Shown here: positions 4,696 through 62,612 of the stretch, piece by piece | Layout: the number at the start of each line of letters is the position of its first letter | How positions within the stretch are numbered: the first letter of the stretch is position 1 | From: Gallaecimonas mangrovi | GTDB taxonomy: Bacteria > Pseudomonadota > Gammaproteobacteria > Enterobacterales > Gallaecimonadaceae | Direction of reading: 5' to 3' | DNA length: 64,000 nucleotides | NCBI RefSeq assembly: GCF_003367375.1 | Contig: NZ_CP031416.1 | Span: forward strand, 3,836,674 to 3,900,673 | Program-made: the position numbers and the translations under genes | The notes under the pieces: generated by a model | Databases searched by the model: none | Told to the model about the DNA's origin: nothing | What the model saw: the letters and a program-made list of their open reading frames with translations, nothing else

Positions 4696-4702
4696 GGCAG
4701 AG

Positions 4703-8094: not shown

Positions 8095-8137
8095 CACGGG
8101 TATCCGCTTATGCTTGTGGTGGGTATTAGTGTAACGG

Positions 8138-8941: not shown

Positions 8942-8975
8942 TGGGTTATCTTGTGCCCCCCCAAGGAGGTCTCTG

Positions 8976-10238: not shown

Positions 10239-10279
10239 CGGTTCCCAAGTGCTTACGCAAAACCCATGCCAGTCAGTTT

Positions 10280-12147: not shown

Positions 12148-12189
12148 CTTTGCTATGCTCCAGGCATCAATAACTTAGGTCCTACTACG

Positions 12190-12594: not shown

Positions 12595-12676
12595 ACAGCA
12601 AGGTCTTTTAAGGTTGTTAGCCGCGCCGCACTGCTTTAGTTATTTGCCTTAACCAATCAAAGGAAGAGGAGCGCCA

Positions 12677-12925
12677 ATGGGCATTATCACCTGGATTATT
12701 TTAGGCTTGGTTGCGGGCATCTTAGCGAAATGGATCATGCCAGGCCGTGACGGTGGCGGCTGTGTTATTACGGTGCTGTTGGGCATTGCTGGCGCTTTTG
12801 TCGGCGGCTGGATAGGCACCTTTCTTGGTTTTGGCCCAGCCACCGGCTTTAACCTCGGCAGTATCTTCACCGCTGTGGTCGGCGCTTTGGTCTTGCTGGC
12901 TATCTACCGCGGCTTAAGCCGGTAA
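12677..12925 (+). CDS. GlsB/YeaQ/YmgE family small membrane protein
   Basis: An 82-residue protein with three hydrophobic helices rich in Gly and Ala, starting GIITWIILGLVAGILAKW and containing the conserved PGRDGGG loop (about residue 22-28). The family (transglycosylase-associated) is often induced by general stress; function is not established. GGAAGAGG precedes the ATG. Confidence 0.9.
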   Translation: MGIITWIILGLVAGILAKWIMPGRDGGGCVITVLLGIAGAFVGGWIGTFLGFGPATGFNLGSIFTAVVGALVLLAIYRGLSR

Positions 12926-13019
12926 GGTAGCGCTTAACCCGCCATTTTGTTGCGCCAGCGCAAAAAATCAGCAGCCATGAACTCGCACAATGCCGGTACC
13001 TTAAAACGGAGGTACCGAT

Positions 13020-13214
13020 ATGCCCACTTGGTTAAACAAATTCAAACTGGATTACTTTGAAACCCTAGCGCTGGCTTCGATGAGTTTTGTGCTGCTGATC
13101 TTGGCCGTTTTTGAAGCAACCACTGCTGCCTGGCTACCCTTGGCCATTATCTTTGCCGCTAGCGGTTCTTGGTTTGCTTATCGTCACCTTCTTCGCCCTG
13201 GGCGCGCGCACTGA
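13020..13214 (+). CDS. small membrane protein, unknown function
   Basis: A 64-residue protein with two predicted transmembrane segments (about 16-30 and 35-52) and a basic C-terminus. No family is recognised. GGAGG seven bases before the ATG supports real translation. It may be co-transcribed with the downstream yjaG-like gene. Confidence 0.6.
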   Translation: MPTWLNKFKLDYFETLALASMSFVLLILAVFEATTAAWLPLAIIFAASGSWFAYRHLLRPGRAH

Positions 13215-13271
13215 CGACAACAGCCCTCGGCTCAGGCTACAATGGGCGGCGACTTCAATGAGCCCGGTTCC

Positions 13272-13841
13272 ATGGAAAAACAGCTTTCTCAACTTACCCC
13301 CTTGGCCCAGCGGGCCTTCGCCGCTGCCCTAGCCCAACGCATGATGCCTAATTTTGTGCTGTTTGCTGATATTACCGAACAGCTTGATAACGCCCATGCT
13401 TTGCAATCTGCCTTGGATACGGTTTGGGAAAAGCTGCTGACACCAAAAGCCAAAATCAACTTCGAAAAGCAGCAACTGAAAATTGCCGAACTCGAACCAG
13501 AACCCGATGCCCACGACTTTTTCGGTGTTTACCCGGCTCTTGATACCTACATGGCCGTGCTCGCCGTCTTAGCGGCAATGCAAGATAAGGACGAACAGCC
13601 AGCGCTGGACGTGAGCCGTTTGTCCCGTGGTTCGGTGCAGTTTTATTTAAATATCCAGGCTGAAACCACCCTTGATTACAGCCAGCTGGATGAAGAACCG
13701 CTGTGGCAAGAAGAGCGCGATTTTCAAGATAACTTGCTAGAGCTTCTTGCCGATGAGCCGGATCTTGAGTGTTTTCGCCAAGCGCGGCAGTTGGGGAAAA
13801 ATGACGGAATTTCTAACCTTGGCATAGCCTTAGAAGATTAA
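13272..13841 (+). CDS. YjaG family (DUF416) protein
   Basis: A 189-residue soluble protein matching E. coli YjaG along its length: MMPNFVLFADI near the start, LDTVWEKLLTPKAKINFEKQ, DFFGVYPALDTYMAV and the C-terminal SNLGIALED. The start at 13272 is preferred over an in-frame ATG ten codons upstream because the family begins here. Function unknown. Confidence 0.85.
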   Translation: MEKQLSQLTPLAQRAFAAALAQRMMPNFVLFADITEQLDNAHALQSALDTVWEKLLTPKAKINFEKQQLKIAELEPEPDAHDFFGVYPALDTYMAVLAVLAAMQDKDEQPALDVSRLSRGSVQFYLNIQAETTLDYSQLDEEPLWQEERDFQDNLLELLADEPDLECFRQARQLGKNDGISNLGIALED

Positions 13842-13946
13842 GCCGTAAAGGCTAGCGCCAAAAGATACAAAAAAGTTAAAAATGTTAAAGAAAACTCCCA
13901 CGTTAGGCGCTATACATTAGCGACCTTTTAAGTAGTGGAGTTTTTG

Positions 13947-15122
13947 ATGAAAAGGCCCCTTGTTCTTTTGGCATCTCTTGCCAGTTTTAGCCTCTATGCC
14001 CAAGATGCCCGTATCCAGGCAATGGGCGGTGCCGGCACCGCCAACGCCGACTACTTGGCAGCTCCCTTTTACAACCCCGCCTTGTTGTCACATTTCGATG
14101 AAAGTGACGACTTTGGCCTGGAGCTCCCCAGCATTGCCGCCAGTTTTCAGGACAAGGACAGCCTGCTCGATAAAATCGATGATTTTCAAGACTTAAACGA
14201 CCGCCTAGAAGCGGTGCAGCAAAACCCTAATGGCACCACCCAAGCCGAGGCCGAACAGCTTGTTGGCCAATGGCAAGACGCCCTTCGTAAAATGAACGGC
14301 AATAGCCTGGATGGGGAAATTGGCTTAGGCGCCGCCATGGCACTGCCCAATAAAACCCTCAGCAGTGCGTTTTTTATCGGTGTTACTGCCTATGTGCGCG
14401 GCATCGTCGACATTGACGAAAACGACCTTGATTGGACCGCCGCAGAGTTGCCAGACCAAGACCTAGACAACCTTAATTCCAACGTCAAAGCCGTTGGCAT
14501 TGCCGTGGTTGATACTGGTCTTGCTTTTAGCCACGGCTTTACCCTTAACAACGGTGACCTGTTAATGGTGGGCGCCAGCCCCAAAGCCCAGCGCATCTAC
14601 AGCTATTTTTACCAGGCAGACGTGAGCAACTTTGACGACAGCGATTGGGACGACAGCCAATATCGCCAAGATAAAAGCGCCTTTAACCTTGATTTAGGGC
14701 TTGCCTATCAACACGATAATTGGCGGCTTGGCTTGAGTGGGCAGAACCTTTTTAAGCAGCAGGTTGATTCAATCATCATCAACCAGCAGCAATTTCGCTA
14801 CCAGTTAAAACCCCGTTTTACCTTGGGTGGCAGTTATGAAAATCATTGGTTTGCGGCCACCTTGGAAGCGGAGCTCACCAAAACCGAGCTGCCATCCTTT
14901 ATTGGCGAAAAACAACAATGGGTGCGCGCCGGTGTTGAGTTTGATGCCTATCGCTGGGCACAGCTTCGGCTTGGCTACCGCCATGATCTGGAAGAGGGCC
15001 AAAATGTATTAACCGCCGGGGTAGGGTTTTCTCCCTTCGATACCGTGCACTTGGACTTCGCATTTGAGACCGGCCAAAACAGCCATACCGGTGGCGCACT
15101 CACCCTTGGCTTTACTTTCTAA
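13947..15122 (+). CDS. TraF-like (TraF_2 family) outer-membrane beta-barrel protein
   Basis: The 391-residue precursor has a signal peptide (residues 1-18, ending SLYA before QDAR) and the motif ARIQAMGGAGTANADYLAAP that marks the TraF_2/conjugal-transfer TraF-like family and FadL-like barrels. Alternating hydrophobic strands and a C-terminal phenylalanine (LTLGFTF) fit an outer-membrane barrel. Despite the name there is no conjugation locus nearby. ATG at 13947 has GTGGAG before it; a GTG four codons upstream is the alternative. A strong terminator follows. Confidence 0.82.
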   Translation: MKRPLVLLASLASFSLYAQDARIQAMGGAGTANADYLAAPFYNPALLSHFDESDDFGLELPSIAASFQDKDSLLDKIDDFQDLNDRLEAVQQNPNGTTQAEAEQLVGQWQDALRKMNGNSLDGEIGLGAAMALPNKTLSSAFFIGVTAYVRGIVDIDENDLDWTAAELPDQDLDNLNSNVKAVGIAVVDTGLAFSHGFTLNNGDLLMVGASPKAQRIYSYFYQADVSNFDDSDWDDSQYRQDKSAFNLDLGLAYQHDNWRLGLSGQNLFKQQVDSIIINQQQFRYQLKPRFTLGGSYENHWFAATLEAELTKTELPSFIGEKQQWVRAGVEFDAYRWAQLRLGYRHDLEEGQNVLTAGVGFSPFDTVHLDFAFETGQNSHTGGALTLGFTF

Positions 15123-15123
15123 C

Positions 15124-15154
15124 AAAGCGCCCCGAACCAGGGGCGCTTTTTTTT
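15124..15154 (+). terminator. terminator after the TraF-like gene
   Basis: AGCGCCCC/GGGGCGCT stem with a 6-base loop followed by eight T. Confidence 0.92.
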
Positions 15155-15206
15155 AGGAATTCCTTTACCATTTGCCCAGCCCCATGCTTTGCAGGCCTAG
15201 GAATAC

Positions 15207-15794
15207 ATGGACTTTTTTTCTGCTGCCGTCACCTTATTTTTGATCATGGACCCCTTAGGCAACATGCCGGTGTTCATCTCCATTCTTAAACATCTACCCG
15301 CAAAACGCCGCCGGGCGATTTTGGTGCGTGAACTGTGCTTGGCACTGCTGATCATGCTGATGTTCTTATTTGGTGGCGACACCATCCTGCACTTTATGGG
15401 CCTCAAGCAAGAGTCGGTGTCCATTGCCGGTGGCATCATTCTGTTTTTAATCGCCATTAAAATGATCTTCCCAAGCCCCGGAGGCCTTACTGGCCTAGCC
15501 GTTGGTGAAGAACCCTTCTTAGTACCCATGGCCATTCCCTTGATGGCGGGTCCTTCAATACTGGCGTCACTGATATTAATGTCGAACCAAGTGCCCAATC
15601 ACTTAGGGCTATTAACCCTGGCACTGGTCGGTGCCTGGGTAGTGAATGCCGCTATTTTGTTGTGCTCAGAGGTATTGATGAAACTGCTAGGTGAACGCGG
15701 CCTGGCGGCAATGGAAAGGCTAATGGGGATGATTTTGGTGATGATCTCCGTGCAGATGTTCTTAAATGGCATTGGCCATTACTTCAAACTTTGA
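15207..15794 (+). CDS. MarC/YhgN family membrane protein
   Basis: A 195-residue protein with six predicted transmembrane helices; the N-terminal LFLIMDPLGNMPVFISIL is the MarC signature. The name NAAT transporter comes from homology; the true substrate is unknown and the old link to multiple antibiotic resistance has not held up. Closest in form to YhgN. Confidence 0.9.
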   Translation: MDFFSAAVTLFLIMDPLGNMPVFISILKHLPAKRRRAILVRELCLALLIMLMFLFGGDTILHFMGLKQESVSIAGGIILFLIAIKMIFPSPGGLTGLAVGEEPFLVPMAIPLMAGPSILASLILMSNQVPNHLGLLTLALVGAWVVNAAILLCSEVLMKLLGERGLAAMERLMGMILVMISVQMFLNGIGHYFKL

Positions 15795-15947
15795 AGGAGT
15801 TAAGTTTTTGTAAATAAAAGTTAAGACATTAGTCACACAAAATCACATTAAGTTACATATTTGCTCAAACTTGTAATAGTTTGCGAACCAATGCGTCAAA
15901 TAGTGCAAAAAAGATGCATGGAAAACCAACTATTTCAGGGAGCAAAA

Positions 15948-18857
15948 ATGAAGAACACTTTGCGCAAGAGTGTATTAGCACTCACTGTCAGTACCATTCT
16001 CTTTTCAGCCGCGCCTGTTTATGCAGATGACCCTCAAGGTTCTTTGGTGGGGAAAGTCGAGCAAGCAAACGGTACAACCTTGGCTGGCACAACCATCACC
16101 ATTACCAACATTGAAACGGGGCTAACCCGTACTGTGACCTCAACAGAACGCGGTGAGTATCGCTTTCCATTGCTGCCCATCGGTCACTATAAAATTACTG
16201 CCAGCAAGTCTGGTTTCGAGCAGGTGATCGCCGACAAGGTTGCTATCAGCGTTGGCCAGCGTGCTAACGTTGACTTTACGCTCTATGAGCAAGGCGTTGA
16301 ACGAATTGAAGTTTCAGGGGCAAGAATTGCCGCTTTTGACGTGTCATCCAATACCAAAGGAATGGTGGTTGATGCCGAAACGTTAGACCGTATGCCCGTA
16401 GCCCGTAACCAAACAGCAGTTGCACTGCTGGCTCCTGGCACTACCAAAGGCGACAGCGCCTTCGGCAACCTCGCCTCTATTGGTGGTTCATCCGTTGCTG
16501 AGAACGCTTACTATGTTAACGGTTTGAACATTACCGACTTCCGTAAAGGCCTCGGCAGCTCTGATGTACCTTTTGACTTTTATGAAACCTTCCAGGTAAA
16601 AACCGGCGGCTATAAAGCAGAATTTGGCCGTTCTACTGGTGGTGTTATTAATGCCACCACCAAAAAAGGCTCTAACGAATTTCACTTCGGTGCCAACACC
16701 TATTGGGAGCCTAAAGGGCTGCATGAAGACAGCCCGGATGTTGTGAACCGCAACGGCACTATTTATCAAAAGAAAAGCGATATCGGCGATTCATCGCTGG
16801 ACGGAAATATCTGGGCATCTGGGCCACTGATTAAAGACAAGCTGTTCTTCTTTGCACTTTATAACCCCCGCGATATTAACAGCCGACGTTTTCGCACCGA
16901 TGGTACGCAAGAAGACGGCAAAACCGACAATGCGTTTTGGGGCGGGAGAATTGACTGGTACATCACCGATGATGTGGTACTAGACGTTACTACCTTCTCT
17001 GACAAACGTGACGACCACTACGTCGATTACAACTATGACTATGACACCAATAACCGTGGCGAAGAGGTAGGTTCTTACACCGAGAAACACGGCGGTAAAA
17101 ACTACATTGCCAACCTCAACGCCAATGTTACGGACAACCTGACAGTGCACGCCTCTTACGGTGTAAACAAAAATGAGTCGACCTCTGTGGCACCAGGTGA
17201 CAACTGCCCCATCGCCTATGACGCCCGTGATCCAGATACATTAAAGCGACTTGGCTGCTGGGATAACAGTTACCGCGGTGCAACCAACGACGAACGTAAA
17301 CAGTATCGCTTTGATGTGGGTTATTACGTTGATGATTTCTTCGGTGCCCACGAATTAAAAGCCGGTATCGATGTTGAAGAGTTAACCTCCAATACCGTAG
17401 AAGAATACTCCGGTGGCACTTACTACCGCTACGTTACGGCTGATCGCAATGACGACGGGGTGTTGGAAGATGAGGTGAGGGTACAGGTTTATAACAACAA
17501 TGGTTCCTTTAAAACCACCTCTACCGCCTTTTATGTTCAAGACACATGGCACGTTACCGATACCCTAACCCTGAACTTAGGTATCCGTAATGAAAGCTTT
17601 GAGAACGATAATAAAGACGGAAAATCCTTTATCAAAATGGATAACCAGTGGGCACCGCGTTTAGGTTTTGCCTGGGATATCAACGGCGATGGCGAGTCAA
17701 AACTTTTTGGTAGCTATGGCCGTTATCATCTTGGTGTGGCAGCTAACACCAATATTCGTTTGGCAGGTGGTGAGCTCTATACCTCAGACTATTACCAGTT
17801 CAACGGCACTATTAATGAAGATGGCTCACCCAGCTCCATCGGTAACCTCACCGAAAGTCACGTTTATGGGAACGGTGAAGTACCAGACACTCGCGCCATT
17901 GTTGACCAAGGTATTGAACCGATGTACCAAGACGAGTACATCCTTGGTTACTCGCTGCAACTGACCGATGACTGGAGCATGTCGATTGTCGGTACCCGCC
18001 GCGACTTAAAATCCACCATCGAAGATATGGCCATTGATGCTGCACTTAATACCTATGCACAAGAAAATGGCTATACCGACTTCGAGGCAGGTGGCTTTGA
18101 TTACTACGTCTTGGGTAATCCCGGTAAAGACATGAATGTCTATATCGACCTTGACGGCGATGGTAATCCTGAAAACATCAACCTATCAGCCTCGGAGCTT
18201 GGTTATCCAAAATCAGAACGATACTACAACGCCGTTGACCTTATCTTTGACCGGATGTGGGATGGCAAGTGGATGTTCCACGGCTCTTACACTTGGTCGC
18301 AAAGCTACGGCAACAACGAAGGTTCAGTACGCTCCGACAACGGCCAAGATGATGCTGGCTTAACCACCTTGTTTGACCAACCTGGTCTGTTAGATGGTGC
18401 CTATGGCTACCTACCTAATGACCGCCGTCACCAGATCAAAATGTTTGGTGCTTATGCACTTGATGAAGCCTTTACCGTTAGTGCCAACTTCAATTGGCAA
18501 AGTGGCCGTCCGAAGAATGCCTTTGGTTACCACCCCACTGATGAGTTTGCCGCGGCTTATGGTTCAGAGTCCTTCTATAGCCTGGGTGAACCCTCACCAC
18601 GGGGCTCTCAAGGCCGGTTGCCCAGCACTTGGACACTGGACCTTGGGCTGCAATGGCAAACCCAGTTCTCCGAAAAATATGACCTGACACTGCGCGCCGA
18701 TGTATTCAACGTCTTCAATAATGACCGTGCCACCGAGGTGTACGAGATTTATGACGACGAAGATACCGGCGGTGCATCCATGGACCCGATGTTTGGCCAA
18801 GCTACCAGCTACCAAACGCCGCGTTACGTGCGTTTGTCAGCGTCGCTTAAATTCTAA
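15948..18857 (+). CDS. Oar-like TonB-dependent receptor, first paralogue
   Basis: A 969-residue outer-membrane receptor. After the signal peptide (about 1-27, ending VYA before DDP) comes a carboxypeptidase-regulatory-like beta domain (about 30-115), then a plug domain and a large barrel ending in a C-terminal phenylalanine (LSASLKF), as in the Oar/TonB-dependent receptor class. Such receptors take up scarce substrates with energy from TonB-ExbBD; Oar itself acts in protein/peptide signal handling in myxobacteria. The ATG at 15948 has AGGGAG before it; upstream in-frame codons are ignored. It shares long blocks (for example GDSAFGNLAS, AENAYY-NGLN, GGY-AEFGRSTGGVI) with the convergent receptor at 19299-22220. 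Substrate unknown. Confidence 0.9.
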   Translation: MKNTLRKSVLALTVSTILFSAAPVYADDPQGSLVGKVEQANGTTLAGTTITITNIETGLTRTVTSTERGEYRFPLLPIGHYKITASKSGFEQVIADKVAISVGQRANVDFTLYEQGVERIEVSGARIAAFDVSSNTKGMVVDAETLDRMPVARNQTAVALLAPGTTKGDSAFGNLASIGGSSVAENAYYVNGLNITDFRKGLGSSDVPFDFYETFQVKTGGYKAEFGRSTGGVINATTKKGSNEFHFGANTYWEPKGLHEDSPDVVNRNGTIYQKKSDIGDSSLDGNIWASGPLIKDKLFFFALYNPRDINSRRFRTDGTQEDGKTDNAFWGGRIDWYITDDVVLDVTTFSDKRDDHYVDYNYDYDTNNRGEEVGSYTEKHGGKNYIANLNANVTDNLTVHASYGVNKNESTSVAPGDNCPIAYDARDPDTLKRLGCWDNSYRGATNDERKQYRFDVGYYVDDFFGAHELKAGIDVEELTSNTVEEYSGGTYYRYVTADRNDDGVLEDEVRVQVYNNNGSFKTTSTAFYVQDTWHVTDTLTLNLGIRNESFENDNKDGKSFIKMDNQWAPRLGFAWDINGDGESKLFGSYGRYHLGVAANTNIRLAGGELYTSDYYQFNGTINEDGSPSSIGNLTESHVYGNGEVPDTRAIVDQGIEPMYQDEYILGYSLQLTDDWSMSIVGTRRDLKSTIEDMAIDAALNTYAQENGYTDFEAGGFDYYVLGNPGKDMNVYIDLDGDGNPENINLSASELGYPKSERYYNAVDLIFDRMWDGKWMFHGSYTWSQSYGNNEGSVRSDNGQDDAGLTTLFDQPGLLDGAYGYLPNDRRHQIKMFGAYALDEAFTVSANFNWQSGRPKNAFGYHPTDEFAAAYGSESFYSLGEPSPRGSQGRLPSTWTLDLGLQWQTQFSEKYDLTLRADVFNVFNNDRATEVYEIYDDEDTGGASMDPMFGQATSYQTPRYVRLSASLKF

Positions 18858-52605: not shown

Positions 52606-53544
52606 TTAGTGAACTGTATATTGAGGGCTCAAACAGTTATTTATTTTTTTATTGATAATTTTTTCCATATAAATAGCACCGTTTTTATTAAGATGATCCC
52701 CATCCCAAAAATATTTATCTGATAATGGATAGTTTATTAAATTTATATAGCATTTACCGAATAGGGACTGCATATCGTTAGTGAAACGACTTAGTCCTAA
52801 CAAGTGATATTCATTAAATTTACTTTCCATATGTGCAACATACCTGTGGTTTAAAGGCATAGACACAACAACTACCTTAAATTTACTGTTAGCAAAAACA
52901 GCTTTAATTTTAGATAAGTTCTCATGATATAATTCTTTATTATGAATAAATAGATTTTTCTTATAATGAGAATCCCTTTTCCAATCTATAATATTTTCAT
53001 GTTCCCGAACACTCAATGGTCTGCGACCATTTTCTGTAAAACCACGATTGTTTTCCATAACCATAGAATTGTCGTTATTTTTTGTAAAGAAACTTAAAAT
53101 TTTATCAAAAAAATCAGAAAAGCTCACTGTCACACTTCTTTCAAATACATCTATATATGCTTTTGGGCTGCGCCTATATAAAAATGTGTTCTCAGATGGA
53201 TATTGTAGAGGAATATTAGTATACATCTCCACAGGAGTAAGGTTAAAAATAATATATTTTAGACTTTTAAAATTTTCTTTTGAATAAGAAAATTCTTTTA
53301 TAGAGTCAATTATTAAAGCACTACTTTCATTCAAATAAAAAACATTCTTGTTATTTAATAATATCCTGTCCGCATGAGAGTTACCAATTACAACCCCTTC
53401 TACCCTCTCTGGGTTTGTTATATTTCTATATTCAAGTCTTCTAGTGCTCACCATGACGATACACTCTATAATAATTATTATTACGCACATGCATACGAAT
53501 ATCTTATATTTTTTAAAATTGCGCATAATAAAATTGTCCATCAA
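52606..53544 (-). CDS. membrane-anchored SGNH-type O-acyltransferase/esterase partner (DltD/AlgJ-like)
   Basis: A 312-residue protein with one N-terminal transmembrane helix (about 13-32) and an SGNH-hydrolase-like domain: block I around VVIGNSHADRIL (Ser in GNSHAD) and the C-terminal DGDHLNKNGA (D-x-x-H). Genes of this type act with MBOAT proteins to acylate surface polysaccharides, as AlgJ/AlgX with AlgI. The start could be the first or second ATG or codon 7 (53526). The DNA is far more AT-rich than the rest of the window, and the 5' end overlaps the MBOAT gene by 32 bases. Confidence 0.75.
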   Translation of the reverse strand: MMDNFIMRNFKKYKIFVCMCVIIIIIECIVMVSTRRLEYRNITNPERVEGVVIGNSHADRILLNNKNVFYLNESSALIIDSIKEFSYSKENFKSLKYIIFNLTPVEMYTNIPLQYPSENTFLYRRSPKAYIDVFERSVTVSFSDFFDKILSFFTKNNDNSMVMENNRGFTENGRRPLSVREHENIIDWKRDSHYKKNLFIHNKELYHENLSKIKAVFANSKFKVVVVSMPLNHRYVAHMESKFNEYHLLGLSRFTNDMQSLFGKCYINLINYPLSDKYFWDGDHLNKNGAIYMEKIINKKINNCLSPQYTVH

Positions 53545-54679
53545 TATGTCTAACGAAAAATGATATCGTCACGAAAATTAAACTAACGGCAATAACCAGA
53601 GGTGGACTAATAGATATGATTTTTTTAACTTTCCTGTAGAAGAAGAAATCAAACAGGAATAAGGTTACTAACGATACAATAAATAGAATCCCATATTTGT
53701 AGCTAATCGTTGGGAATATATAATTTGGAATTATACCATTGAATGTATATCCAACTAAAAAATAAAATAAGATTTGACTTATTAATAAAATTTTACGATA
53801 TTTTTTTATTTTATTTTGTATTAAAAAGTAAGTTATATTAAAAATACCAAAGGATAAAAAGTTAAATGTCAATCCATGCCATAAAGATAGAACTGACACA
53901 CTAACGATAATATTAATATATGCTTTGTACTTTCTATACTTTTTACTGCCTGATACCTTAAAAAAGTCATTACACCATTTAAAAACCGTTATATTCCAAC
54001 GACTATAAAATTGAGATACATTTCGACAAAAGAATGGGGCTCTAAAACTCATTGGCATTTTAAACCCTGCCAAGCCAGCGATACCTATTCCCATTAATGA
54101 CCAAGATAGATAGTCCGAGTACATATAAGCGAGCCAAAATACCGAGTTTAATAAACTGTTATCTTCCAAAAAAATTTTATGCGTTACATAAGCCACATAA
54201 ATTTTAAAAAACAATCCAATGGCAAAAATGAGATGATATAAAGCCAGCGATTTAATATTAATTTTTTTTAATCTATCAAAGCTAGAAGGTTTTACTATTG
54301 GGCCGCAATATAGCTGAGGAAAAAAACTGAGTTTACTGATTAAGTCACCGCAGCTTATATTATCTTTTATATAATAGCAGACTTGAAATAGCGCAAAGCT
54401 CACCCCTACAAGCTGATAACCACTAGCTGTACTAAAAAAAGTGTTCTTCAATAAAATTAAAACCAATACCGTTAGTGCTATATATAAATCTTTAATAATC
54501 ACATATGTTGATAATATCTTCACTAGCAAAGAAATAGCACATATAATGAAAAATGTTTCTGGATACAATAAAAATGAAAAAACGACACCGCTTAATATCA
54601 CTATTTTTTTTGAATTAGTGATAGCAGAAATAAAATATAAAACAATAAGAGCGGTAACCAATCTTACATTCCCTTGCAT
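53513..54679 (-). CDS. MBOAT family membrane O-acyltransferase
   Basis: A 388-residue polytopic protein with about ten hydrophobic helices. The catalytic histidine is in VSVLSLWHGLTFNF, preceded by the MBOAT signature region FYSRWNITVFKWCNDFF, as in AlgI, DltB and PatA-type acyltransferases, which carry acyl groups across the membrane to polymers. Length is short relative to AlgI (about 470-520), so the N-terminus may be reduced. Codon use and composition are AT-rich, indicating acquisition by transfer together with the downstream SGNH gene. Confidence 0.85.
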   Translation of the reverse strand: MQGNVRLVTALIVLYFISAITNSKKIVILSGVVFSFLLYPETFFIICAISLLVKILSTYVIIKDLYIALTVLVLILLKNTFFSTASGYQLVGVSFALFQVCYYIKDNISCGDLISKLSFFPQLYCGPIVKPSSFDRLKKINIKSLALYHLIFAIGLFFKIYVAYVTHKIFLEDNSLLNSVFWLAYMYSDYLSWSLMGIGIAGLAGFKMPMSFRAPFFCRNVSQFYSRWNITVFKWCNDFFKVSGSKKYRKYKAYINIIVSVSVLSLWHGLTFNFLSFGIFNITYFLIQNKIKKYRKILLISQILFYFLVGYTFNGIIPNYIFPTISYKYGILFIVSLVTLFLFDFFFYRKVKKIISISPPLVIAVSLIFVTISFFVRHIDGQFYYAQF

Positions 54680-55177: not shown

Positions 55178-55207
55178 AAAAAGGCCGGGTTTCGACCCGG
55201 CCTTTTT
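55178..55207. terminator. terminator of the LysR gene (bidirectional shape)
   Basis: AAAAAGGCCGGGT/ACCCGGCCTTTTT stem with TTCG loop. Confidence 0.92.
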
Positions 55208-56244
55208 TAGCTGACTTTCGCCATCAGTTTTTTGTCTTCACTGGTAAATTTTGACAACACCTGATTAAGAAGGTCATCTTTAATCGCATCGCTATTCTTG
55301 GCAATAGCTTCACTTATCATCTCATCGCGGTCCTTACAGGAGCTGGTTTTTAACTTATCCAGCTCAATCAAGGTCTCGCTAAGCTCGTCCAAGAACGTCT
55401 TTAGCAGCTTCGGCATGTATTGACGGCTTTGGTAAAGAGCATACATTTCGCCACTTTCCATGGTCCACTCGGGCAGTACCCGTACTAGGCGACCTTCATT
55501 CACGTAAGGCAGTGCCATAAAGAGCGGCAATGCTCCCACTCCCATCCCAGACAGCATCGCTTCGCGGGCAAAGGTGACATTATTGCAGTGCAAACGGCCT
55601 TTGGGCTGAATGGTGACCTGCTCTTTGCTTTTGACAAAACGCAGTGGCTCGTAAGCATCGCCCGACATTTTTAACAGCAGGTTTTCGTGGTCGTTTAAAT
55701 CTTCCGGGTGTAGCAGGGGGCTGCTCGCCGCCAAATAATCAGGAGACGCCACCATGATGGTACGAGTAGAGGTCAGCCGCCGGGCAATCAGGTTGGAATC
55801 TTGGCCAAGGCCCACCTGAATATTAACGTCCACCCCTTCTTGCACCATATCGATGCGGCGGTTGGTAAGCTCTGCGTCAATTTCCACATCCGGATACTTT
55901 TGCATAAAGTGACCCAAAAAGCGGCCCATCAGCATTTGCCCCAGTTCGATGGGCATGACCACTTTGAGTTTGCCGCGTACTTGCTCAGCGCGGGTGGTTA
56001 CCAAAGCCTGGGCGTCGGCCAGGTCAGTCATGATCCGCGAGCAGCGCTCATAAAAGGCCTGGCCGGTTTCGGTCAGGTTTAATTGGCGGGTAGTACGGTT
56101 TAAAAGGCGCACCCCTAACCGTTCTTCTAAATCAGCAATCTTTCGGCTGACGGTTGCCTTGGTCATACTCAGTCGCTCACCGGCAGAGGTGAAGCTTCCT
56201 ACTTCGACAACTTTGGTAAATACCTGAATTTCATTAAGATCCAC
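55207..56244 (-). CDS. LysR family transcriptional regulator with C-terminal extension
   Basis: A 345-residue regulator: N-terminal winged helix (residues about 3-60, FTSAGERLSMTKATVSRKIADLEERLG), then the periplasmic-binding-protein-like effector domain (about 90-295, including KVVMPIELGQMLMGRFLGHF). A further tail of about 45 residues, charged and helical, follows the normal end and is unusual for the family. It lies next to, and divergent from, the ATP-grasp/Anbu operon (about 390 bases apart) and may control it. Confidence 0.9.
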   Translation of the reverse strand: MDLNEIQVFTKVVEVGSFTSAGERLSMTKATVSRKIADLEERLGVRLLNRTTRQLNLTETGQAFYERCSRIMTDLADAQALVTTRAEQVRGKLKVVMPIELGQMLMGRFLGHFMQKYPDVEIDAELTNRRIDMVQEGVDVNIQVGLGQDSNLIARRLTSTRTIMVASPDYLAASSPLLHPEDLNDHENLLLKMSGDAYEPLRFVKSKEQVTIQPKGRLHCNNVTFAREAMLSGMGVGALPLFMALPYVNEGRLVRVLPEWTMESGEMYALYQSRQYMPKLLKTFLDELSETLIELDKLKTSSCKDRDEMISEAIAKNSDAIKDDLLNQVLSKFTSEDKKLMAKVS

Positions 56245-56631
56245 TGAAGCCTCCCCGACTTAGCCACTAGAGCAAAGTAAGTAACAGTAAGCATAAAAGC
56301 GACGAACTTATTAAATTAATGGAACGAAACTAAGATGTCGAGCATCTAAGTGTTGATTTATTACGCAAGAAATACGATTGCCATCGCCAGTTTTTTCTAT
56401 TAGCAATTGAAATAAAAAGACATTTTGGCTTATTTGAAAAAAATGAAACAACAACCTCTTCTTCTAGGCATTTTTCCACCACGCTAACCGCTACTGGTTT
56501 TTGGTGCTTTAGGTCACGAAAATCTGTCATCTGCAGCGAAAGCTTCGCGTTCCTTAACAACATCTATTGACCAACCCCCTGACTCCCTGCAATTAATCCT
56601 GTTCGGATAGGGATATTTTTCAGGGTGCACG
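56245..56631. other. intergenic region upstream of the ATP-grasp operon
   Basis: About 390 bases, AT-rich, no credible gene. It must hold the promoters of the LysR gene and of the ATP-grasp operon. I see no strong repeat or operator; AGGG before the ATG at 56632 is the only clear signal. Confidence 0.5.
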
Positions 56632-58035
56632 ATGTTCAATGAAATGATGAGTGACGATAAGGTTCGCGACCCGTACCAAGCCCTCACCGAATGGATGGAA
56701 GCCACAGGCTCGGAAAACCTGGCGCAAAAACGCGCGGAAGCCGAAACCCTGTTTCGCAAAATTGGTATCACCTTCGCGGTCTACGGTGACGGTGGCGATC
56801 CGGAGCGGCTTATTCCTTTTGATTTAATTCCCCGCATTTTTACCGCCGACGAATGGCGCAACTTAAAGCGCGGCGTTGAGCAGCGCGCCCGTGCACTGAA
56901 CGCCTTTTTATTCGATGTTTACCACAATGCCGAGATCATCAAAGCAGGCATTATCCCTGGCGAACTGGTGTTTAATAATGCCGCCTTTGAACCCGCCGTT
57001 ATCGGCATCGACCCGCCGGGCAAGGTGTATAGCCACATCATTGGTGTCGATATTGTCAGGGTCAGCGAAAACGAGTTTTACGTATTAGAAGACAATTGCC
57101 GCACCCCTTCCGGCGTGTCCTATATGCTGGAAAACCGCGAGATAATGATGCGGATGTTTCCAGAACTGTTCTCGCAGCTGCGTATCGAGCCGGTCGACAG
57201 CTACCCGGAAGAACTCTTAAAAACCTTAAAAAGCATTGCCCCGAAAGACTGTAAGGGTGAGCCCTGCATTGTGGTGCTAACGCCTGGCGCCCTAAACAGC
57301 GCCTATTACGAACATTCCTTTCTGGCTGACCAAATGGGGGTTGAGCTGGTAGAGGGCCAAGACCTTTTTGTCTCTGGCAGCCACCTTTACATGCGCACCA
57401 CGCGCGGCCCGGAACGGGTTGATGTGATTTACAGGCGTATCGACGATGCCTACCTGGACCCTTTGTGTTTTCGCCCCGATTCAGTGCTGGGCGTGCCGGG
57501 GCTGATGAATGTCTATCGCGCCGGCAATGTGGCCATCTGCTCCGCGCCGGGGGCTGGCGTTGCCGACGACAAAGCCGTTTATACCTACGTACCGTCGATG
57601 ATCCGTTTTTATCTCGGTGAAGAGCCCATTTTGAACAATGTGCCCACCTACCAGTGCGCCAAAGCCGCCGATTTGGAGTATGTGCTGGCGCACCTTCCGG
57701 AACTGGTGGTCAAGGAAGTGCATGGCTCCGGCGGCTACGGCATGCTGGTGGGCCCTGCCGCCAATCGCGAGGAAATCGACGCCTACGCTGGCCGCATTCG
57801 CGCCAACCCCAGCGACTTTATCGCCCAGCCCACCTTAAGCCTGTCTACCTGCCCCACCTTTGTAGAAAGTGGCATTGCACCGCGCCATGTTGACCTGCGC
57901 CCCTTCTGCTTGGTGGGCGACAAAATTCGGCTGGTACCCGGCGGCCTCACCCGGGTTGCCCTGCGAGAAGGGTCACTGGTGGTGAACTCGTCGCAAGGTG
58001 GCGGCGTGAAAGACACCTGGATCATGGCGGAATAA
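56632..58035 (+). CDS. circularly permuted type 2 ATP-grasp protein
   Basis: A 467-residue protein of the circularly permuted ATP-grasp class (formerly DUF404/DUF407). Conserved stretches are RNLKRGVEQRARALNAFL-like near residue 75-92, YVLEDNCRTPSGVSYMLENR (about 147-166), GPERVDVIYRRIDDAYLDPL, VVKEVHGSGGYGMLVGP with the phosphate-binding Gly loop, and RPFCLVGDKIRLVPGGLTRVA. ATP-grasp enzymes join a carboxylate to an amine; this subclass was predicted from gene neighbourhoods to make a peptide or amide product. First gene of a four-gene unit whose members overlap or nearly touch. Confidence 0.92.
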   Translation: MFNEMMSDDKVRDPYQALTEWMEATGSENLAQKRAEAETLFRKIGITFAVYGDGGDPERLIPFDLIPRIFTADEWRNLKRGVEQRARALNAFLFDVYHNAEIIKAGIIPGELVFNNAAFEPAVIGIDPPGKVYSHIIGVDIVRVSENEFYVLEDNCRTPSGVSYMLENREIMMRMFPELFSQLRIEPVDSYPEELLKTLKSIAPKDCKGEPCIVVLTPGALNSAYYEHSFLADQMGVELVEGQDLFVSGSHLYMRTTRGPERVDVIYRRIDDAYLDPLCFRPDSVLGVPGLMNVYRAGNVAICSAPGAGVADDKAVYTYVPSMIRFYLGEEPILNNVPTYQCAKAADLEYVLAHLPELVVKEVHGSGGYGMLVGPAANREEIDAYAGRIRANPSDFIAQPTLSLSTCPTFVESGIAPRHVDLRPFCLVGDKIRLVPGGLTRVALREGSLVVNSSQGGGVKDTWIMAE

Positions 58036-58045
58036 GGAATCAAGT

Positions 58046-58987
58046 ATGCTCAGTCGCACCGCCGCCAACTTGTTTTGGCTATCCCGTTATGTTGAGCGCG
58101 CCGAAAACATGGCCCGCCTGATGGAAATGGGTTATCGCATGGCAATGATGCCCGCTACCGGCAAGGGCTACCGCAGTGAATGGCAGTCGGTAATGGCAGC
58201 TGCCGGTTTTACCCTCACCGATTTTATTCCGCTAACCCAGGCGGAAGTGGCCGATTACTTGGTGTTTGATAAAGACAACCCATCGTCCATCAGTAACTGT
58301 CTCGAGCAGGCCCGTAACAATGCCCGCGCCATGCGCACCGCCATTACCGCTGACATGTGGGACGCCATTAATAGTGCCCACATGGAACTGAAAAAGCCCG
58401 CCATGCGTTACATGGTGCGCAACAACCTGCCGGAATTTTTAGACTGGGTTAAACGCCAAGGGGCGCTGTTTCGCGGCGCCACCGACTCGACGGTGCTGCG
58501 CAATGACGGCTATGACTTTCTGCGCTTGGGCACCTTGCTGGAAAGGGCCGACAACACCGCTCGCCTGTTGGATGTAAAGTACTATGTGCTGCTGCCAGAA
58601 AGCTCGGTGGTGGGCGACAGCCGCGACAGCTACCAATGGACCACGGTGCTGCGCGCAGTATCTGCACTGCGTTCTTTTCATTGGGTATATAAAGACAACT
58701 ACACGCCACTACTCATCGCCGACTTTCTGATTTTAAACCCCCTAAGCCCGCGTTCTTTAGCGCACTGTTATTCGGGTATTACCGAGCATCTGCAACGGCT
58801 TTCAAGGCTCTATCACAGCCGTCAAAGCGCCGGCACCGAAGCGCTGGAAACCTATTCGATATTGCTGCACGGCGACATGGAAGACATTTTCAACAGTGGT
58901 CTGCACGAGTTTTTAAGCAACTTTTTGCTGCGTAATGCTGCCCTGTCGGAAAGCATTGCCGAGTCTTACTATTTCGGAGGCCAATAA
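58046..58987 (+). CDS. alpha-E domain protein
   Basis: A 313-residue all-helical protein of the alpha-E family. It opens with LSRTAANLFWLSRYVERAENMARLMEMG, the family signature, repeated in spirit at GTLLERADNTARLLDVKYY (about residue 168-186). Always found with circularly permuted ATP-grasp proteins, sometimes fused to them, so it probably is a partner or regulator of the ligase. AAGGA upstream; ten bases after the ATP-grasp stop; it ends one base before the next start. Confidence 0.92.
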   Translation: MLSRTAANLFWLSRYVERAENMARLMEMGYRMAMMPATGKGYRSEWQSVMAAAGFTLTDFIPLTQAEVADYLVFDKDNPSSISNCLEQARNNARAMRTAITADMWDAINSAHMELKKPAMRYMVRNNLPEFLDWVKRQGALFRGATDSTVLRNDGYDFLRLGTLLERADNTARLLDVKYYVLLPESSVVGDSRDSYQWTTVLRAVSALRSFHWVYKDNYTPLLIADFLILNPLSPRSLAHCYSGITEHLQRLSRLYHSRQSAGTEALETYSILLHGDMEDIFNSGLHEFLSNFLLRNAALSESIAESYYFGGQ

Positions 58988-59806
58988 ATGCGTCTGACGG
59001 TTTCCCACAGTACCTGTTATCGCTACGATCCGGCGGTACGTTACGTCACCCAAAGCCTCAAGCTTACCGCCAGCCGTTTTGCGGGCCAGCGGGTGCTTAA
59101 TTGGCAAATTAGCGCCGAAGGCTGCACCATCAGTGCGCCTTTTGTAGACGGCTACGGCGACACCGTTTACACCTTAACCGCCAGCGGCCCACTTGAGAGC
59201 CTTGAAGTATTAGTAACCGGCACGGTACGCACCCAAGACCAAGCGGGCGTACTCAAAGACCATAAAGAAAAGGCCGCGCCACAGGTTTTTCTGCGCGCAA
59301 CTGCCGCCACCAAAGCCGATGAGGCCATTGCCGAACTAGCCCTTAAGGTCAAAGCCGCCAACAGTGAGGTAAGCCCGTTAGAGCTTGCCCATGCCTTGGC
59401 CAACGCAGTAAGCGATGCCATTGCCTACGCGCCCGGCAGCACCCACGCCCATACCAGTGCCGCCGAGGCTCTGGCCGCCGGGCAGGGAGTTTGCCAAGAC
59501 CACAGCCAGGTGCTTATCAGCGCCGCCCGTTCACTGTGCATACCGGCAAGGTACGTGTCAGGTTACCTATTTGCAGACGCCGATGGCGTGCCACACGAAG
59601 CCGCCCATGCCTGGGCTGAACTTTACATTCAAGGCCTTGGCTGGGTTGGCTTTGATTGCGCTAACCGCTGCTGTCCCACCGAGTACTATATTCGCTTGGG
59701 ATCAGGGCTTGATGCGCGGGACGCGGCGCCCATTCGCGGTGTACATTCAGGTGGCGGCGAGGAACAACTTGATGTATCTGTTGTGGTGAAGCAATCACAG
59801 CAATAA
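58988..59806 (+). CDS. transglutaminase-like cysteine protease
   Basis: A 272-residue cytoplasmic protein. It has the N-terminal beta domain of bacterial transglutaminase-like proteases (LTVSHSTCYRYDPAVRYVTQ) and a papain-fold core with the catalytic Cys in GQGVCQDHSQVLIS (about residue 175), His in HEAAHAWAELYI and Asp in GFDCANR. It would cleave an amide or peptide bond, possibly in the product of the ATP-grasp ligase. It begins at the base after the alpha-E stop. Confidence 0.93.
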   Translation: MRLTVSHSTCYRYDPAVRYVTQSLKLTASRFAGQRVLNWQISAEGCTISAPFVDGYGDTVYTLTASGPLESLEVLVTGTVRTQDQAGVLKDHKEKAAPQVFLRATAATKADEAIAELALKVKAANSEVSPLELAHALANAVSDAIAYAPGSTHAHTSAAEALAAGQGVCQDHSQVLISAARSLCIPARYVSGYLFADADGVPHEAAHAWAELYIQGLGWVGFDCANRCCPTEYYIRLGSGLDARDAAPIRGVHSGGGEEQLDVSVVVKQSQQ

Positions 59807-59821
59807 CGGAATTCACCGCCA

Positions 59822-60541
59822 ATGACCTACTGTGTAGGACTCAAACTGGACCAAGGTCTGGTTTTTTTATCAGACACCCGCACCAACGCTGGCCTCGATA
59901 ATGTGGCCCGCTTTCGCAAAATGTTTCATTGGCAAGAGCCCGGTGAAAGAGCCATTGTCATGGTGACGGCCGGTAACCTGGCCATTACCCAGGCGGTGAT
60001 CAACCGCTTGCAAGATGCCATCGACAACAGTGACCCTGACGGCACCTTGTTGAGTGCAAAAACCATGTCGGAAGTGGCGCAGCACGTGGGCGACGCCATG
60101 CAGCAGGTGCAGGGCAAATATCACCAGACCTTAGAGCAGCGCAACGAAAACTCGACCGCCACTATCATGGTCGGAGGCCAGCTCAAGGGCGGTAAGCCGC
60201 GGCTATTTTTGGTGTATTCCGCCGGTAATTTTATTGAAGCCACCGAAGACACCCCTTATTTGCAAATAGGCGAACACAAATACGGCAAGCCCATTCTTGA
60301 CCGTGTTATTACCCCGGCCACGCCCCTTAGCGATGGGATAAAAGCGGTGCTGTTATCGATGGACTCCACCTTACGCTCCAACTTATCGGTAGGCATGCCC
60401 CTGGATTTGGCGGTACTGCCGGCAGGCAAATGCCAGTTTTCCATGCGCCGCCGCATCGAGGCTGACGATGAACATTTTCGGGCCTTGTCTGAGGCCTGGT
60501 CACAGGCATTAAGGGATGCCTTTACCGATATGCCAGACTAA
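59822..60541 (+). CDS. Anbu-type proteasome-like peptidase
   Basis: A 239-residue Ntn-hydrolase of the bacterial proteasome-homologue (Anbu) class. After removal of Met the protein begins with Thr1 (TYCVGLKLDQGLVFLSD), with Asp17 in LSDTRTN and a Lys at about residue 32, the three residues of the proteasome-type active site. Anbu proteins form open helical rings, unlike HslV, and their substrate is unknown. The linked ATP-grasp, alpha-E and transglutaminase genes are the usual company of Anbu. Confidence 0.92.
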   Translation: MTYCVGLKLDQGLVFLSDTRTNAGLDNVARFRKMFHWQEPGERAIVMVTAGNLAITQAVINRLQDAIDNSDPDGTLLSAKTMSEVAQHVGDAMQQVQGKYHQTLEQRNENSTATIMVGGQLKGGKPRLFLVYSAGNFIEATEDTPYLQIGEHKYGKPILDRVITPATPLSDGIKAVLLSMDSTLRSNLSVGMPLDLAVLPAGKCQFSMRRRIEADDEHFRALSEAWSQALRDAFTDMPD

Positions 60542-60568
60542 ACCATCACGTTAAAACAAGGATGATGC

Positions 60569-61963
60569 ATGCGCCGCTTGTTATGGTTTGCCCTTTTTAG
60601 CAGTTGTTGCTGGGCCAAAGGTGACTTAACGGCGACCCTGGCAGCCATTGATGCTGACCAGCGCCAGCCGTTACCGGTAAATGCCTACATCACCATTAAC
60701 GCCAATGCTCGCCGCGACCTTCAGCAAGCAAAGCCGGGGCCGCTCCATGGCTGGTTATTGGCGATAAAAGACAATATCGAGGTGGCAGGCCTGCCCACCA
60801 CCGCCGGTTCTTTAGCGCTTTCAAACTACCTGCCCGATAGCGACGCCGCCATTGTCAGCCAGCTCAAGCAAGCTGGCGCTGTGGTGCTGGGCAAGGCCAA
60901 CTTAAGTGAATGGGCCAACTTTCGCGGCCAGCATGCTAGCAGTGGCTGGAGCGCCGTTGGCGGCCAAACCCGGTTACCGATGGACCGGCGCCGCAGCCCC
61001 TGCGGGTCGTCATCTGGCTCGGCGGCGGCAGTGGCCGCCGGCATGGCTGACGCCGCCATCGGCACCGAAACCGACGGTTCCATTACCTGCCCGGCAGCCG
61101 TCAACGGGCTGGTTGCCATCAAGCCCACCCTTGGCGCCGTATCAAACCAGGGCATAGTGCCCATTTCGCATCAGCAAGATACCGCTGGCCCCTTGGCAAA
61201 GACGGTTGACGATACCGCCAAGCTTTTAATGGCCATCAGCCAGCCTGGTTATTTTGAGCAACAAGGCCTGCCAACGGTGGCCCTTGGCCAGCTAAAAGTG
61301 GCGGTACTGCAACACAAGGCCGACTTTGACCAACGGGTGGCGGCGCTACTGACAATGGCCGTTCAGCGTTTTAAAAAGCACGGCGCCAAGGTTAAGCCGG
61401 TGGATTTACCCGACACCAGCGCCCTTGGCCAGGCCGAATTTACTGCCCTGGTAGCAGAGTTTCACCACGACCTTGGTGCCTACCTGGCAGGGTTGCCAAA
61501 AACGGTAGCGGTACACAGCATTAGCGAGCTGGTGCGTTTTAATCAGCTGCACGCTGAGGATGAGCTGCGTTATTTTGGCCAACAAACGCTGCTAATGGCC
61601 GAAAAGGCGCAAGACGGTAGCAAGGCCAGAGCACAGGCACGGCGGCTTGCCAGGCAAACCCTGGACGGCATCTTTGCCCAAGGCTATGACGTCCTCATTG
61701 CCCCCACCAATGGCCCGGCATGGCTGATTGACCATATCAATGGCGACCATTACCGCGGCGGTACGTCAACACTGGCGGCGGTGGCCGGTTACCCCCATGT
61801 CACGGTGCCGATGGGCAACATCGCCAATTTACCCATCGGCCTATCACTCATAGGGCCACCGGGCAGCGATTTGCGGTTACTGGCCATTGCCAAAGGCTGG
61901 CAACAAGCCCACGACAAAGTTGCACTTACCGCCTCGCTTTCCCATACTGCCGCCCCTTTATAG
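60569..61963 (+). CDS. exported amidase (amidase-signature family)
   Basis: A 464-residue protein with a likely signal peptide (about 1-16, ending CCWA before KGD) and the Ser-cisSer-Lys core: catalytic Lys in LLAIKDNIEVAG (near residue 67), cis-Ser in SPCGSSSGSAAA and the nucleophile in GTETDGSITCPA. It hydrolyses an amide bond of unknown substrate, probably in the periplasm. Starts 27 bases after Anbu on the same strand, so it may belong to the same transcript. Confidence 0.88.
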   Translation: MRRLLWFALFSSCCWAKGDLTATLAAIDADQRQPLPVNAYITINANARRDLQQAKPGPLHGWLLAIKDNIEVAGLPTTAGSLALSNYLPDSDAAIVSQLKQAGAVVLGKANLSEWANFRGQHASSGWSAVGGQTRLPMDRRRSPCGSSSGSAAAVAAGMADAAIGTETDGSITCPAAVNGLVAIKPTLGAVSNQGIVPISHQQDTAGPLAKTVDDTAKLLMAISQPGYFEQQGLPTVALGQLKVAVLQHKADFDQRVAALLTMAVQRFKKHGAKVKPVDLPDTSALGQAEFTALVAEFHHDLGAYLAGLPKTVAVHSISELVRFNQLHAEDELRYFGQQTLLMAEKAQDGSKARAQARRLARQTLDGIFAQGYDVLIAPTNGPAWLIDHINGDHYRGGTSTLAAVAGYPHVTVPMGNIANLPIGLSLIGPPGSDLRLLAIAKGWQQAHDKVALTASLSHTAAPL

Positions 61964-61985
61964 CGCTTAACCCAAGGGAGTCGTG

Positions 61986-62612
61986 ATGAGACGCGCCAAG
62001 AACCTGGACGATAAAGCCCTGCGCTTTCAGCAGATCCTCGACAGCGCCAGAGCCTTGCACCATCAATTCAAACGCCTACCCACCGCCGCAGAGCTCGCCA
62101 CCGAAACCGGCCTCGGTAAAGGCACGCTATACCTGTATTTTCGCTCCCGCGAGGCCATTTTTCTGACGCTGCTTGAAGCCGACATCAAACAATGGCTCAG
62201 TAGCATTCAGCAGTTAGGCAACCCGGCATTGCCGTTTGAGCAGACCATGAAAATGCTGATAGACCGCATTGCCAGCGACCAAGATACCTGCCGCCTGGCA
62301 GCGCTTTCCCATGGCCTGATTGAAAACAGTGACGACCTAGACGCCATTACCAAATACAAAGGCGCTATCGCTGTTGCCGTTACCGAATGCGCCGACAGCA
62401 TTGCCAGGCGCACCCAGCACAGCGCCAGCGACATTCAGCGGCTGTTGCAAGCGTCTTACGCGTTAATGATGGGGCTGTGGCAGGCCGCTAACCCGCCCGC
62501 AGTGGTCAGAGCCATGCCAAAAGCAGGCACCCTGCAAGAGCCTGATTTTGTTACTACCAGCAAGCAGGCCTTACTGTCGTTATGGCAGGGCTGGCTGTTA
62601 AAGCCGAACTGA
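61986..62612 (+). CDS. TetR family transcriptional regulator
   Basis: A 208-residue regulator: DNA-binding helix-turn-helix about residues 12-58 (RLPTAAELATETGLGKGTLYLYFRSREAIFL) and an all-helical ligand domain. AAGGGAG upstream; ATG at 61986 is used, a GTG one codon earlier is the alternative. It lies 22 bases after the amidase and may regulate this block. Confidence 0.88.
   Translation: MRRAKNLDDKALRFQQILDSARALHHQFKRLPTAAELATETGLGKGTLYLYFRSREAIFLTLLEADIKQWLSSIQQLGNPALPFEQTMKMLIDRIASDQDTCRLAALSHGLIENSDDLDAITKYKGAIAVAVTECADSIARRTQHSASDIQRLLQASYALMMGLWQAANPPAVVRAMPKAGTLQEPDFVTTSKQALLSLWQGWLLKPN

What the first reader, a model, noticed from the sequence alone, without database searches (positions are those of the whole stretch)
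56632..61963. Five-gene unit of ATP-grasp ligase, alpha-E, transglutaminase protease, Anbu peptidase and secreted amidase
The first four genes touch or nearly touch (gaps 10, 0 and 15 bases) and the amidase follows after 27. Established knowledge: circularly permuted ATP-grasp, alpha-E and transglutaminase genes recur together and with Anbu, a proteasome relative with unknown substrate; comparative genomics has suggested a peptide made by the ligase and cut or processed by the proteases. Inference specific to this window: the amidase with a signal peptide would act outside the cytoplasm, so a small amide- or peptide-linked product may be exported or salvaged. This is the best candidate here for an incompletely described system.
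Basis: partly seen in the sequence, partly recalled or inferred. Interest (0 to 1): 0.78.

Follow-up and report, generated by a model that had tools for sequence, protein, structure and literature searches.

The report
Anbu operon landed beside efflux-locus amidase
The window holds a known four-gene set built around Anbu, a bacterial relative of the proteasome, which was likely taken over whole from a distant group of bacteria and dropped in front of a predicted amidase gene that likely already stood behind a predicted drug pump, so the apparent five-gene unit is mostly ordinary, although one unrelated lineage shows the same five-gene order.

Summary
In detail: coordinates and gaps check out. 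The first four genes are the known Anbu operon. A TetR gene (61983-62612) follows as a sixth. The amidase resembles Stenotrophomonas peptide amidase and keeps its catalytic residues.

Within the genus (five genomes) the amidase is not tied to Anbu. In G003 it sits behind an HlyD-MFS pump and before TetR, with no Anbu or ATP-grasp gene in the genome. G004 keeps a decayed 5' end of it there. Only the window genome and G001 carry the Anbu block, between pump and amidase (the pump is gone in the window genome). Trees put the block with Thalassospira, in another class. Most likely it was acquired horizontally and inserted; the amidase is a captured neighbour.

Against this: in an unrelated lineage (G769, G868) another peptide-amidase-like gene also follows Anbu directly, and three of 21 genomes outside the genus that hold both genes have them within 15 kb (0.18 expected). 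Yet 0 of 77 Anbu loci picked as about one per genus have an amidase nearby. A functional fifth part is possible but unlikely. Side result: sigma-54-type sites precede ATP-grasp in 14 of 64 loci, not here.

The parts
56632..58035 (+). Circularly permuted ATP-grasp ligase-like gene, first gene of the Anbu operon
   Evidence: Pfam CP_ATPgrasp_2 E 2.2e-166; PDB 3n6x E 1.6e-202; 93% identical in G001, no match in G002, G003, G004
58046..58987 (+). Alpha-E gene, second gene of the Anbu operon
   Evidence: Pfam Alpha-E E 2.1e-91; one match in the genome; no convincing relative among solved structures (best E 0.14)
58988..59806 (+). Transglutaminase-like cysteine protease gene, third gene of the Anbu operon
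   Evidence: Pfam Transglut_core and Bact_transglu_N; PDB 3isr, with Cys, His and Asp aligned by eye
59822..60541 (+). Anbu, proteasome-like predicted peptidase, last gene of the Anbu operon
   Evidence: Five PDB chains, three named Anbu, two named Peptidase; T2, D18 and K33 invariant in 12 sequences
60569..61963 (+). Amidase-signature enzyme, peptide-amidase-like, likely exported; judged a captured neighbour, not a member of the Anbu operon
   Evidence: Pfam Amidase E 3.5e-84; best PDB match peptide amidase 1m21; orthologue in G003 directly after the MFS gene without Anbu
61983..62612 (+). TetR-family regulator of the same locus; orthologues in G001, G002 and G003
   Evidence: Pfam TetR_N and TetR_C_34; synteny
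56245..56631 (.). Intergenic region: the LysR-proximal part matches the LysR-HlyD region of G003 (and weakly of G001), the ATP-grasp-proximal part (about 56498-56627) matches the region upstream of the operon in G001
   Evidence: Local alignments with shuffled controls
55207..56244 (-). LysR regulator; in the four other genomes its orthologue stands divergent to the HlyD gene
   Evidence: Pfam; synteny

Best explanation
The run of genes is the known four-gene Anbu operon, likely acquired as one block from an alphaproteobacterium and likely inserted between a predicted drug-efflux pump gene and a peptide-amidase-like gene that was probably already there, so the amidase is likely a captured neighbour and not a fifth working part. 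Shown: the block is at this place in two of five genomes of the genus; the amidase, or its relic, stands directly behind the pump in two genomes in which no Anbu or ATP-grasp gene was found; the nearest relatives of the block are in another class. Inferred: direction (insertion, not loss), the later deletion of the HlyD-MFS pump in the window genome, and co-transcription of amidase and TetR with the block. Mechanism, from family knowledge and untested here: the ATP-grasp enzyme would make a peptide-like or isopeptide bond at the cost of ATP with Alpha-E as a helper, and the transglutaminase-like protein and Anbu would cut or trim the product, or damaged protein, inside the cell, probably most important when nitrogen is short; the amidase would act separately in the periplasm, taking the amide off peptides or small molecules, as part of the old pump and TetR locus.
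For: Synteny of five genomes: G002 LysR(-)/HlyD-MFS-TetR-DUF885; G004 LysR(-)/HlyD-MFS-DUF885; G003 LysR(-)/HlyD-MFS-amidase-TetR-DUF885; G001 LysR(-)/HlyD-MFS-[ATP-grasp, alpha-E, TG, Anbu]-amidase-TetR-DUF885; window LysR(-)/[the four]-amidase-TetR-DUF885. Genome-wide in the five: ATP-grasp in 2, Anbu in 2, amidase orthologue in 3. Relic of the amidase 5' end behind the pump in G004: local score 102 with G003 (maximum of 300 shuffles 54) and 69 with G001 (50). Split {window, G001} against the rest 100/100 in an unrooted LysR + DUF885 tree. Among 80 named loci Thalassospira is closest for all four genes (ATP-grasp 83%, alpha-E 69%, TG 65%, Anbu 74%) and forms a starred clade with window + G001 in the ATP-grasp (82 rows) and Anbu (102 rows) trees; three genomes with 73-74% identical Anbu are listed as same phylum, not same class. 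No pump orthologue left in the window genome (best 32%). No amidase match in 77 loci picked as about one per genus, in 20 longer and 29 short loci of the class; four distant ones in 80 named loci.
Against: G769 and G868 have the same five-gene order with another peptide-amidase-like gene; G438 and G521, of one genus, have the two within about 10 kb. Of 21 genomes outside the genus holding both genes, 1 has them within 1.5 kb (0.018 expected, Poisson P 0.017) and 3 within 15 kb (0.18 expected, P 0.0008; 0.014 if G438 and G521 count once). Both genes occur together in 23 of 398 genomes, 17 expected. The window's own amidase start does not match the G004 relic above shuffles (28 against 47). Base composition does not mark the block as foreign. 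No terminator was found between Anbu and amidase in the window, so the amidase may really be transcribed with the operon. Five genomes and an unrooted tree do not strictly exclude loss in three. No expression data.
Confidence: 0.78

Rival explanations
1. The amidase is a true fifth component: the cytoplasmic enzymes make or trim an amidated peptide, and the exported amidase removes the amide outside, so gene order is kept by selection.
For: The same five-gene order exists in an unrelated lineage (G769, G868) with an amidase from another branch of the family; gap 27 bases here and about 20 in G769 if its third Met is the start; more co-location than random placement.
Against: No amidase match in 77 loci picked as about one per genus nor in 20 longer class loci; amidase without Anbu in G003; of four Anbu-bearing genomes seen of the genus of G769, two lack that amidase; different compartments.
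Confidence: 0.15
2. The five or six genes are one ancestral operon of the genus, and G002, G003 and G004 lost the four Anbu genes.
For: Presence and absence in five genomes alone cannot exclude it; composition of the block is like that of its neighbours.
Against: The block groups with another class in both trees; needs a clean excision in G003 that leaves 48 bases between the pump stop and the likely amidase ATG (about 10 to the first possible start); pump next to amidase or its relic in two genomes.
Confidence: 0.05
3. Chance adjacency with separate promoters and no shared transcription (not exclusive with the best explanation).
For: The amidase belongs to the pump and TetR locus in G003.
Against: 27-base gap with no terminator-like site in the window; terminator-like hairpins follow the pump in G001 and Anbu in Thalassospira, although such hairpins are also expected 0.6-0.7 times in shuffles of those stretches.
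Confidence: 0.2

Closest known systems
Anbu operon (ATP-grasp, alpha-E, transglutaminase, Anbu), as published for Yersinia bercovieri and named for Pseudomonas
   Same: Same four genes in the published order on one strand; Anbu matches solved Anbu structures over its full length; conserved Thr, Asp, Lys
   Different: Here followed closely by an amidase and a TetR gene; nearest relatives are alphaproteobacterial; no sigma-54-type site found upstream
Peptide amidase of Stenotrophomonas maltophilia (PDB 1m21; organism recalled)
   Same: Aligned over residues 54-446 of the window protein, with the Lys and two Ser taken as catalytic
   Different: Substrate untested; below the curated cut-off of the best NCBIfam amidase model; sits in a pump and TetR locus, next to Anbu in two genomes of the genus
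HlyD + MFS efflux locus with divergent LysR (EmrAB-like; name recalled)
   Same: HlyD and MFS Pfam matches in G003, LysR divergent
   Different: Pump genes are absent from the window genome; the Anbu block now stands next to LysR
NtrC-dependent DUF404/407, DUF403, transglutaminase cluster of Burkholderia cenocepacia (PMC5491218, passages)
   Same: Same ATP-grasp and alpha-E families; nitrogen control
   Different: The passages seen name no Anbu; the window lacks a sigma-54-type site

Membership tests
Anbu operon | ATP-grasp, alpha-E, transglutaminase-like and Anbu genes in order on one strand | tested here: met
Anbu operon | Anbu keeps Thr1 after the initiator Met, Asp17 and Lys32 (numbers from PMC6376114, passages) | tested here: met
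   M1, T2, D18, K33 invariant in 12 sequences
Anbu operon | Split-ring Anbu assembly and an enzymatic activity | not testable with these tools
   Needs purified protein; published assays found no peptidase or amidase activity of Yersinia Anbu (PMC6376114, passages incl. abstract text)
Anbu operon | Amidase as a regular member | tested here: not met
   0 of 77, 0 of 20 and 0 of 29 loci; 4 of 80 named loci, none just downstream of Anbu; exceptions G769 and G868 among 30 short loci of one order
Amidase-signature peptide amidase | Lys, cis-Ser, Ser triad (identity of the triad recalled) | tested here: met
   Window K67, S147, S171 align with K86, S165, S189 of chain 1m21_A (read off the alignment)
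Amidase-signature peptide amidase | NCBIfam equivalog cut-off for a named amidase | tested here: not met
   Best model NF006006, 472.8 bits against a cut-off of 534
Amidase-signature peptide amidase | Hydrolysis of C-terminal peptide amides | not testable with these tools
   Needs an assay
Exported protein | Sec signal peptide | tested here: inconclusive
   By eye only: charged start, hydrophobic stretch and an Ala-Lys-Gly-Asp junction in three orthologues; no predictor was run

The most novel reading that the evidence does not exclude
A periplasmic peptide amidase has been recruited to the Anbu operon at least twice by opposite routes (operon inserted before an old amidase here; amidase added behind an old operon in the G769 lineage), which would make the Anbu product an exported C-terminally amidated peptide and give the first substrate lead for this proteasome relative.
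Probability: 0.13. Interest if true: 0.75.

Novelty: new member of a known kind. Interest (0 to 1): 0.36.

Why it matters
In the papers seen the Anbu operon still has no proven function. Showing that its apparent fifth gene is most likely a local neighbour prevents a false functional lead. The repeated five-gene order and the sigma-54-type sites upstream of part of the operons give two cheap tests: amidated peptides, and nitrogen limitation.

Tried and rejected
NAGGN link: in G438 the three genes of the N-acetylglutaminylglutamine amide system lie between the amidase and a divergent Anbu operon. These proteins matched 1 of 111 loci (G438 itself) and 0 of 80, so I dropped it.

Recurrent further neighbour: all-against-all comparison of ORFs in 83 loci (the 30 largest clusters were printed) showed no steady partner besides the core genes. 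Amidase-like ORFs form a cluster of 4 loci, which are G001, G769, G438 and G521. Clusters that by position look antisense to core genes were discounted by eye.

Sigma-54 or NtrC control in the window: no site in 500 bases upstream. The sigma-70 scan found no promoter at its threshold; a TTGACC and AATC-type stretch shared upstream by window, G001 and Thalassospira was seen by eye only.

Amidase in other close Anbu holders: in G312, G407, G752, G642 and G748 only amidase-signature matches at 28-36% identity to the G769 amidase were found, at other places than Anbu.

Papers: Iyer et al. 2009 is not held and is cited through other papers and recall. Seen: PMC5666114 passages and section 14; PMC6376114, PMC5491218, PMC3597751 and PMC8665760 passages. 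A search for Anbu with amidase listed five papers; PMC6376114 uses the word for activity; the other four were not opened. I found no report of this gene order in the listings or the passages read; most subscription papers are not covered.

Weak points: PF01425 was not counted genome-wide; absence near Anbu rests on tblastn with the window amidase at E 1e-5. Alpha-E and transglutaminase were not searched genome-wide in G002, G003 and G004. The 77 loci were picked by hand as about one per genus from 145 Anbu genomes, flanks up to about 8 kb and 76 of 77 with at least 1 kb downstream of Anbu; the 20 longer class loci were picked from 86 genomes, the 29 short ones with 1.5 kb flanks; of 72 Anbu genomes only 30 short loci were looked at. 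The random stretches include coding sequence.
Full report
Check of the observation. Pfam assigns CP_ATPgrasp, Alpha-E, transglutaminase-like, proteasome subunit and amidase. Five PDB chains match the fourth protein, three named Anbu and two named Peptidase; the fifth matches peptide amidase 1m21 best. ATP-grasp has one solved relative, 3n6x; alpha-E has none at a convincing E-value. A TetR gene follows the amidase after about 20 bases.

What is known. The four-gene operon in this order is published (PMC5666114, PMC6376114, passages). [quoted passage not shown] Fuchs et al. hold a degradation role more likely and the peptide-synthesis idea less likely. Anbu rises in nitrogen-limited Pseudomonas putida. 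A related ATP-grasp, alpha-E and transglutaminase cluster depends on NtrC in Burkholderia cenocepacia (PMC5491218, passages), and the same domains go with urea metabolism domains in marine metagenomes (PMC3597751, passages).

Genus history. Of five genomes, Anbu is in the window genome and G001, ATP-grasp in the same two, and an amidase orthologue in these and G003. The locus is syntenic in all five (families). G003 reads LysR, HlyD, MFS, amidase, TetR, DUF885. G001 has the four Anbu genes as one block between MFS and amidase. The window genome has the block but no HlyD or MFS at the locus and no pump orthologue elsewhere (best 32%). G002 has pump and TetR without amidase. G004 has the pump and directly behind it a decayed 5' end of the amidase: as DNA, local score 102 with G003 and 69 with G001 (maxima of 300 shuffles 54 and 50), but 28 with the window's own amidase start (maximum 47), which is no match. 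The left part of the window's intergenic region matches the LysR-HlyD region of G001 weakly (64 against 56, 200 shuffles) and of G003 better (57 against 37); the right part matches the region upstream of the operon in G001 (94 against 39). A tree of LysR plus DUF885 splits window + G001 from the other three with 100/100, unrooted. Third-position GC of the four genes is like that of their neighbours in both genomes, so composition gives no sign of a recent transfer.

Origin of the block. Among the 80 named loci the closest relative is Thalassospira povalilytica for all four genes. Careful trees put window, G001 and Thalassospira in one starred clade, for ATP-grasp (82 rows) and Anbu (102 rows), inside a larger group of alphaproteobacterial rows that also holds two genomes of the window's class, G312 and G407. 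In the phylum survey the next matches after G001 are three genomes of another class at 73-74%.

Does the amidase go with Anbu? Class survey: Anbu in 86 of 369 genomes, peptide-amidase-like protein (E at most 1e-50) in 11 of 369, both in 3, adjacent only in the window genome. Phylum survey: 145 and 47 of 398, both in 23, against 17 expected if independent. Of the 21 outside the genus, G769 has them adjacent, G438 and G521 (one genus) within about 10 kb. Random placement gives 0.018 within 1.5 kb and 0.18 within 15 kb; the Poisson chances are 0.017 for one or more, and 0.0008 for three or more (0.014 for two or more). Around Anbu, an amidase match was found in 4 of 80 named loci: three Roseomonadaceae with a distant amidase just before ATP-grasp and one almost 10 kb away. 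It was found in 0 of 20 longer and 0 of 29 short loci of the class, in 0 of 77 loci picked as about one per genus, and in 2 of 30 short loci of the order of G769, namely G769 and G868. In their genus G858 and G811 have the operon but lack this amidase, so there the amidase probably joined an existing operon. The amidases of the window's genus form one starred clade, those of G769 and G868 another; deeper branches are weakly supported. So the same order arose twice, probably by opposite routes.

Reading. The simplest account is a horizontally acquired Anbu operon that landed in an efflux, amidase and TetR locus. The amidase then likely came under read-through from the operon: no terminator-like site lies in the 27-base gap, while such hairpins follow the pump in G001 and Anbu in Thalassospira. 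The scans are consensus matches, not proof. The repeated five-gene order keeps a functional link alive at low probability.

Side result on control. A strict sigma-54-type pattern lies within 400 bases upstream of ATP-grasp in 14 of 64 usable loci of the phylum set, against 10 of 1280 random 400-base stretches of the same loci; in 8 of 65 of the named set against 3 of 1300; and in 1 of 13 of the class set against 2 of 260. NtrC-like sites are in 5 of 65 of the named set (13 of 1300 random), 2 of 64 of the phylum set (25 of 1280) and 0 of 13 of the class set (4 of 260), so they are enriched at most in the named set. An earlier scan with shuffled controls gave 9 of 78 against a mean of 0.14. This fits nitrogen control in part of the family. 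The window has no such site.

Noticed in passing
L198 (G769) about 5511-11158, L235 (G868): Separate occurrence of the five-gene order ATP-grasp, alpha-E, transglutaminase, Anbu, peptide-amidase-like gene; two other genomes of that genus have the operon but lack the amidase.
   Followed up: yes
L199 (G438) 2924-16277: DPPIV-like peptidase, amidase, the three NAGGN osmoprotectant genes and a divergent Anbu operon in one stretch; NAGGN is a dipeptide amide (recalled). Not seen at the other loci scanned.
   Followed up: partly
L111, L113, L136 upstream of the ATP-grasp gene: Roseomonadaceae Anbu loci with a distant amidase-signature gene just before ATP-grasp and no transglutaminase match in the locus.
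   Followed up: no
L150, L151 (G312, G407): A second family of the window's class has ATP-grasp and Anbu genes grouped with Rhodobacter-type rows, suggesting another cross-class transfer.
   Followed up: partly
Upstream of ATP-grasp in 14 of 64 phylum loci, e.g. L241, L259, L266: Strict sigma-54-type sites, far above random stretches of the same loci; fits nitrogen control of part of the Anbu operons.
   Followed up: partly
L237, L243, L248-L251, L258, L260-L263, L269, L273, L282, L288: Anbu genes with no ATP-grasp or alpha-E match in the fetched stretch: 15 of 80 loci.
   Followed up: no
window 53513-54679 and left flank: MBOAT acyltransferase gene on the minus strand beyond LysR; the DUF6351 gene found left of LysR in the other four genomes was not seen in the 3.9 kb left of LysR here.
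   Followed up: no
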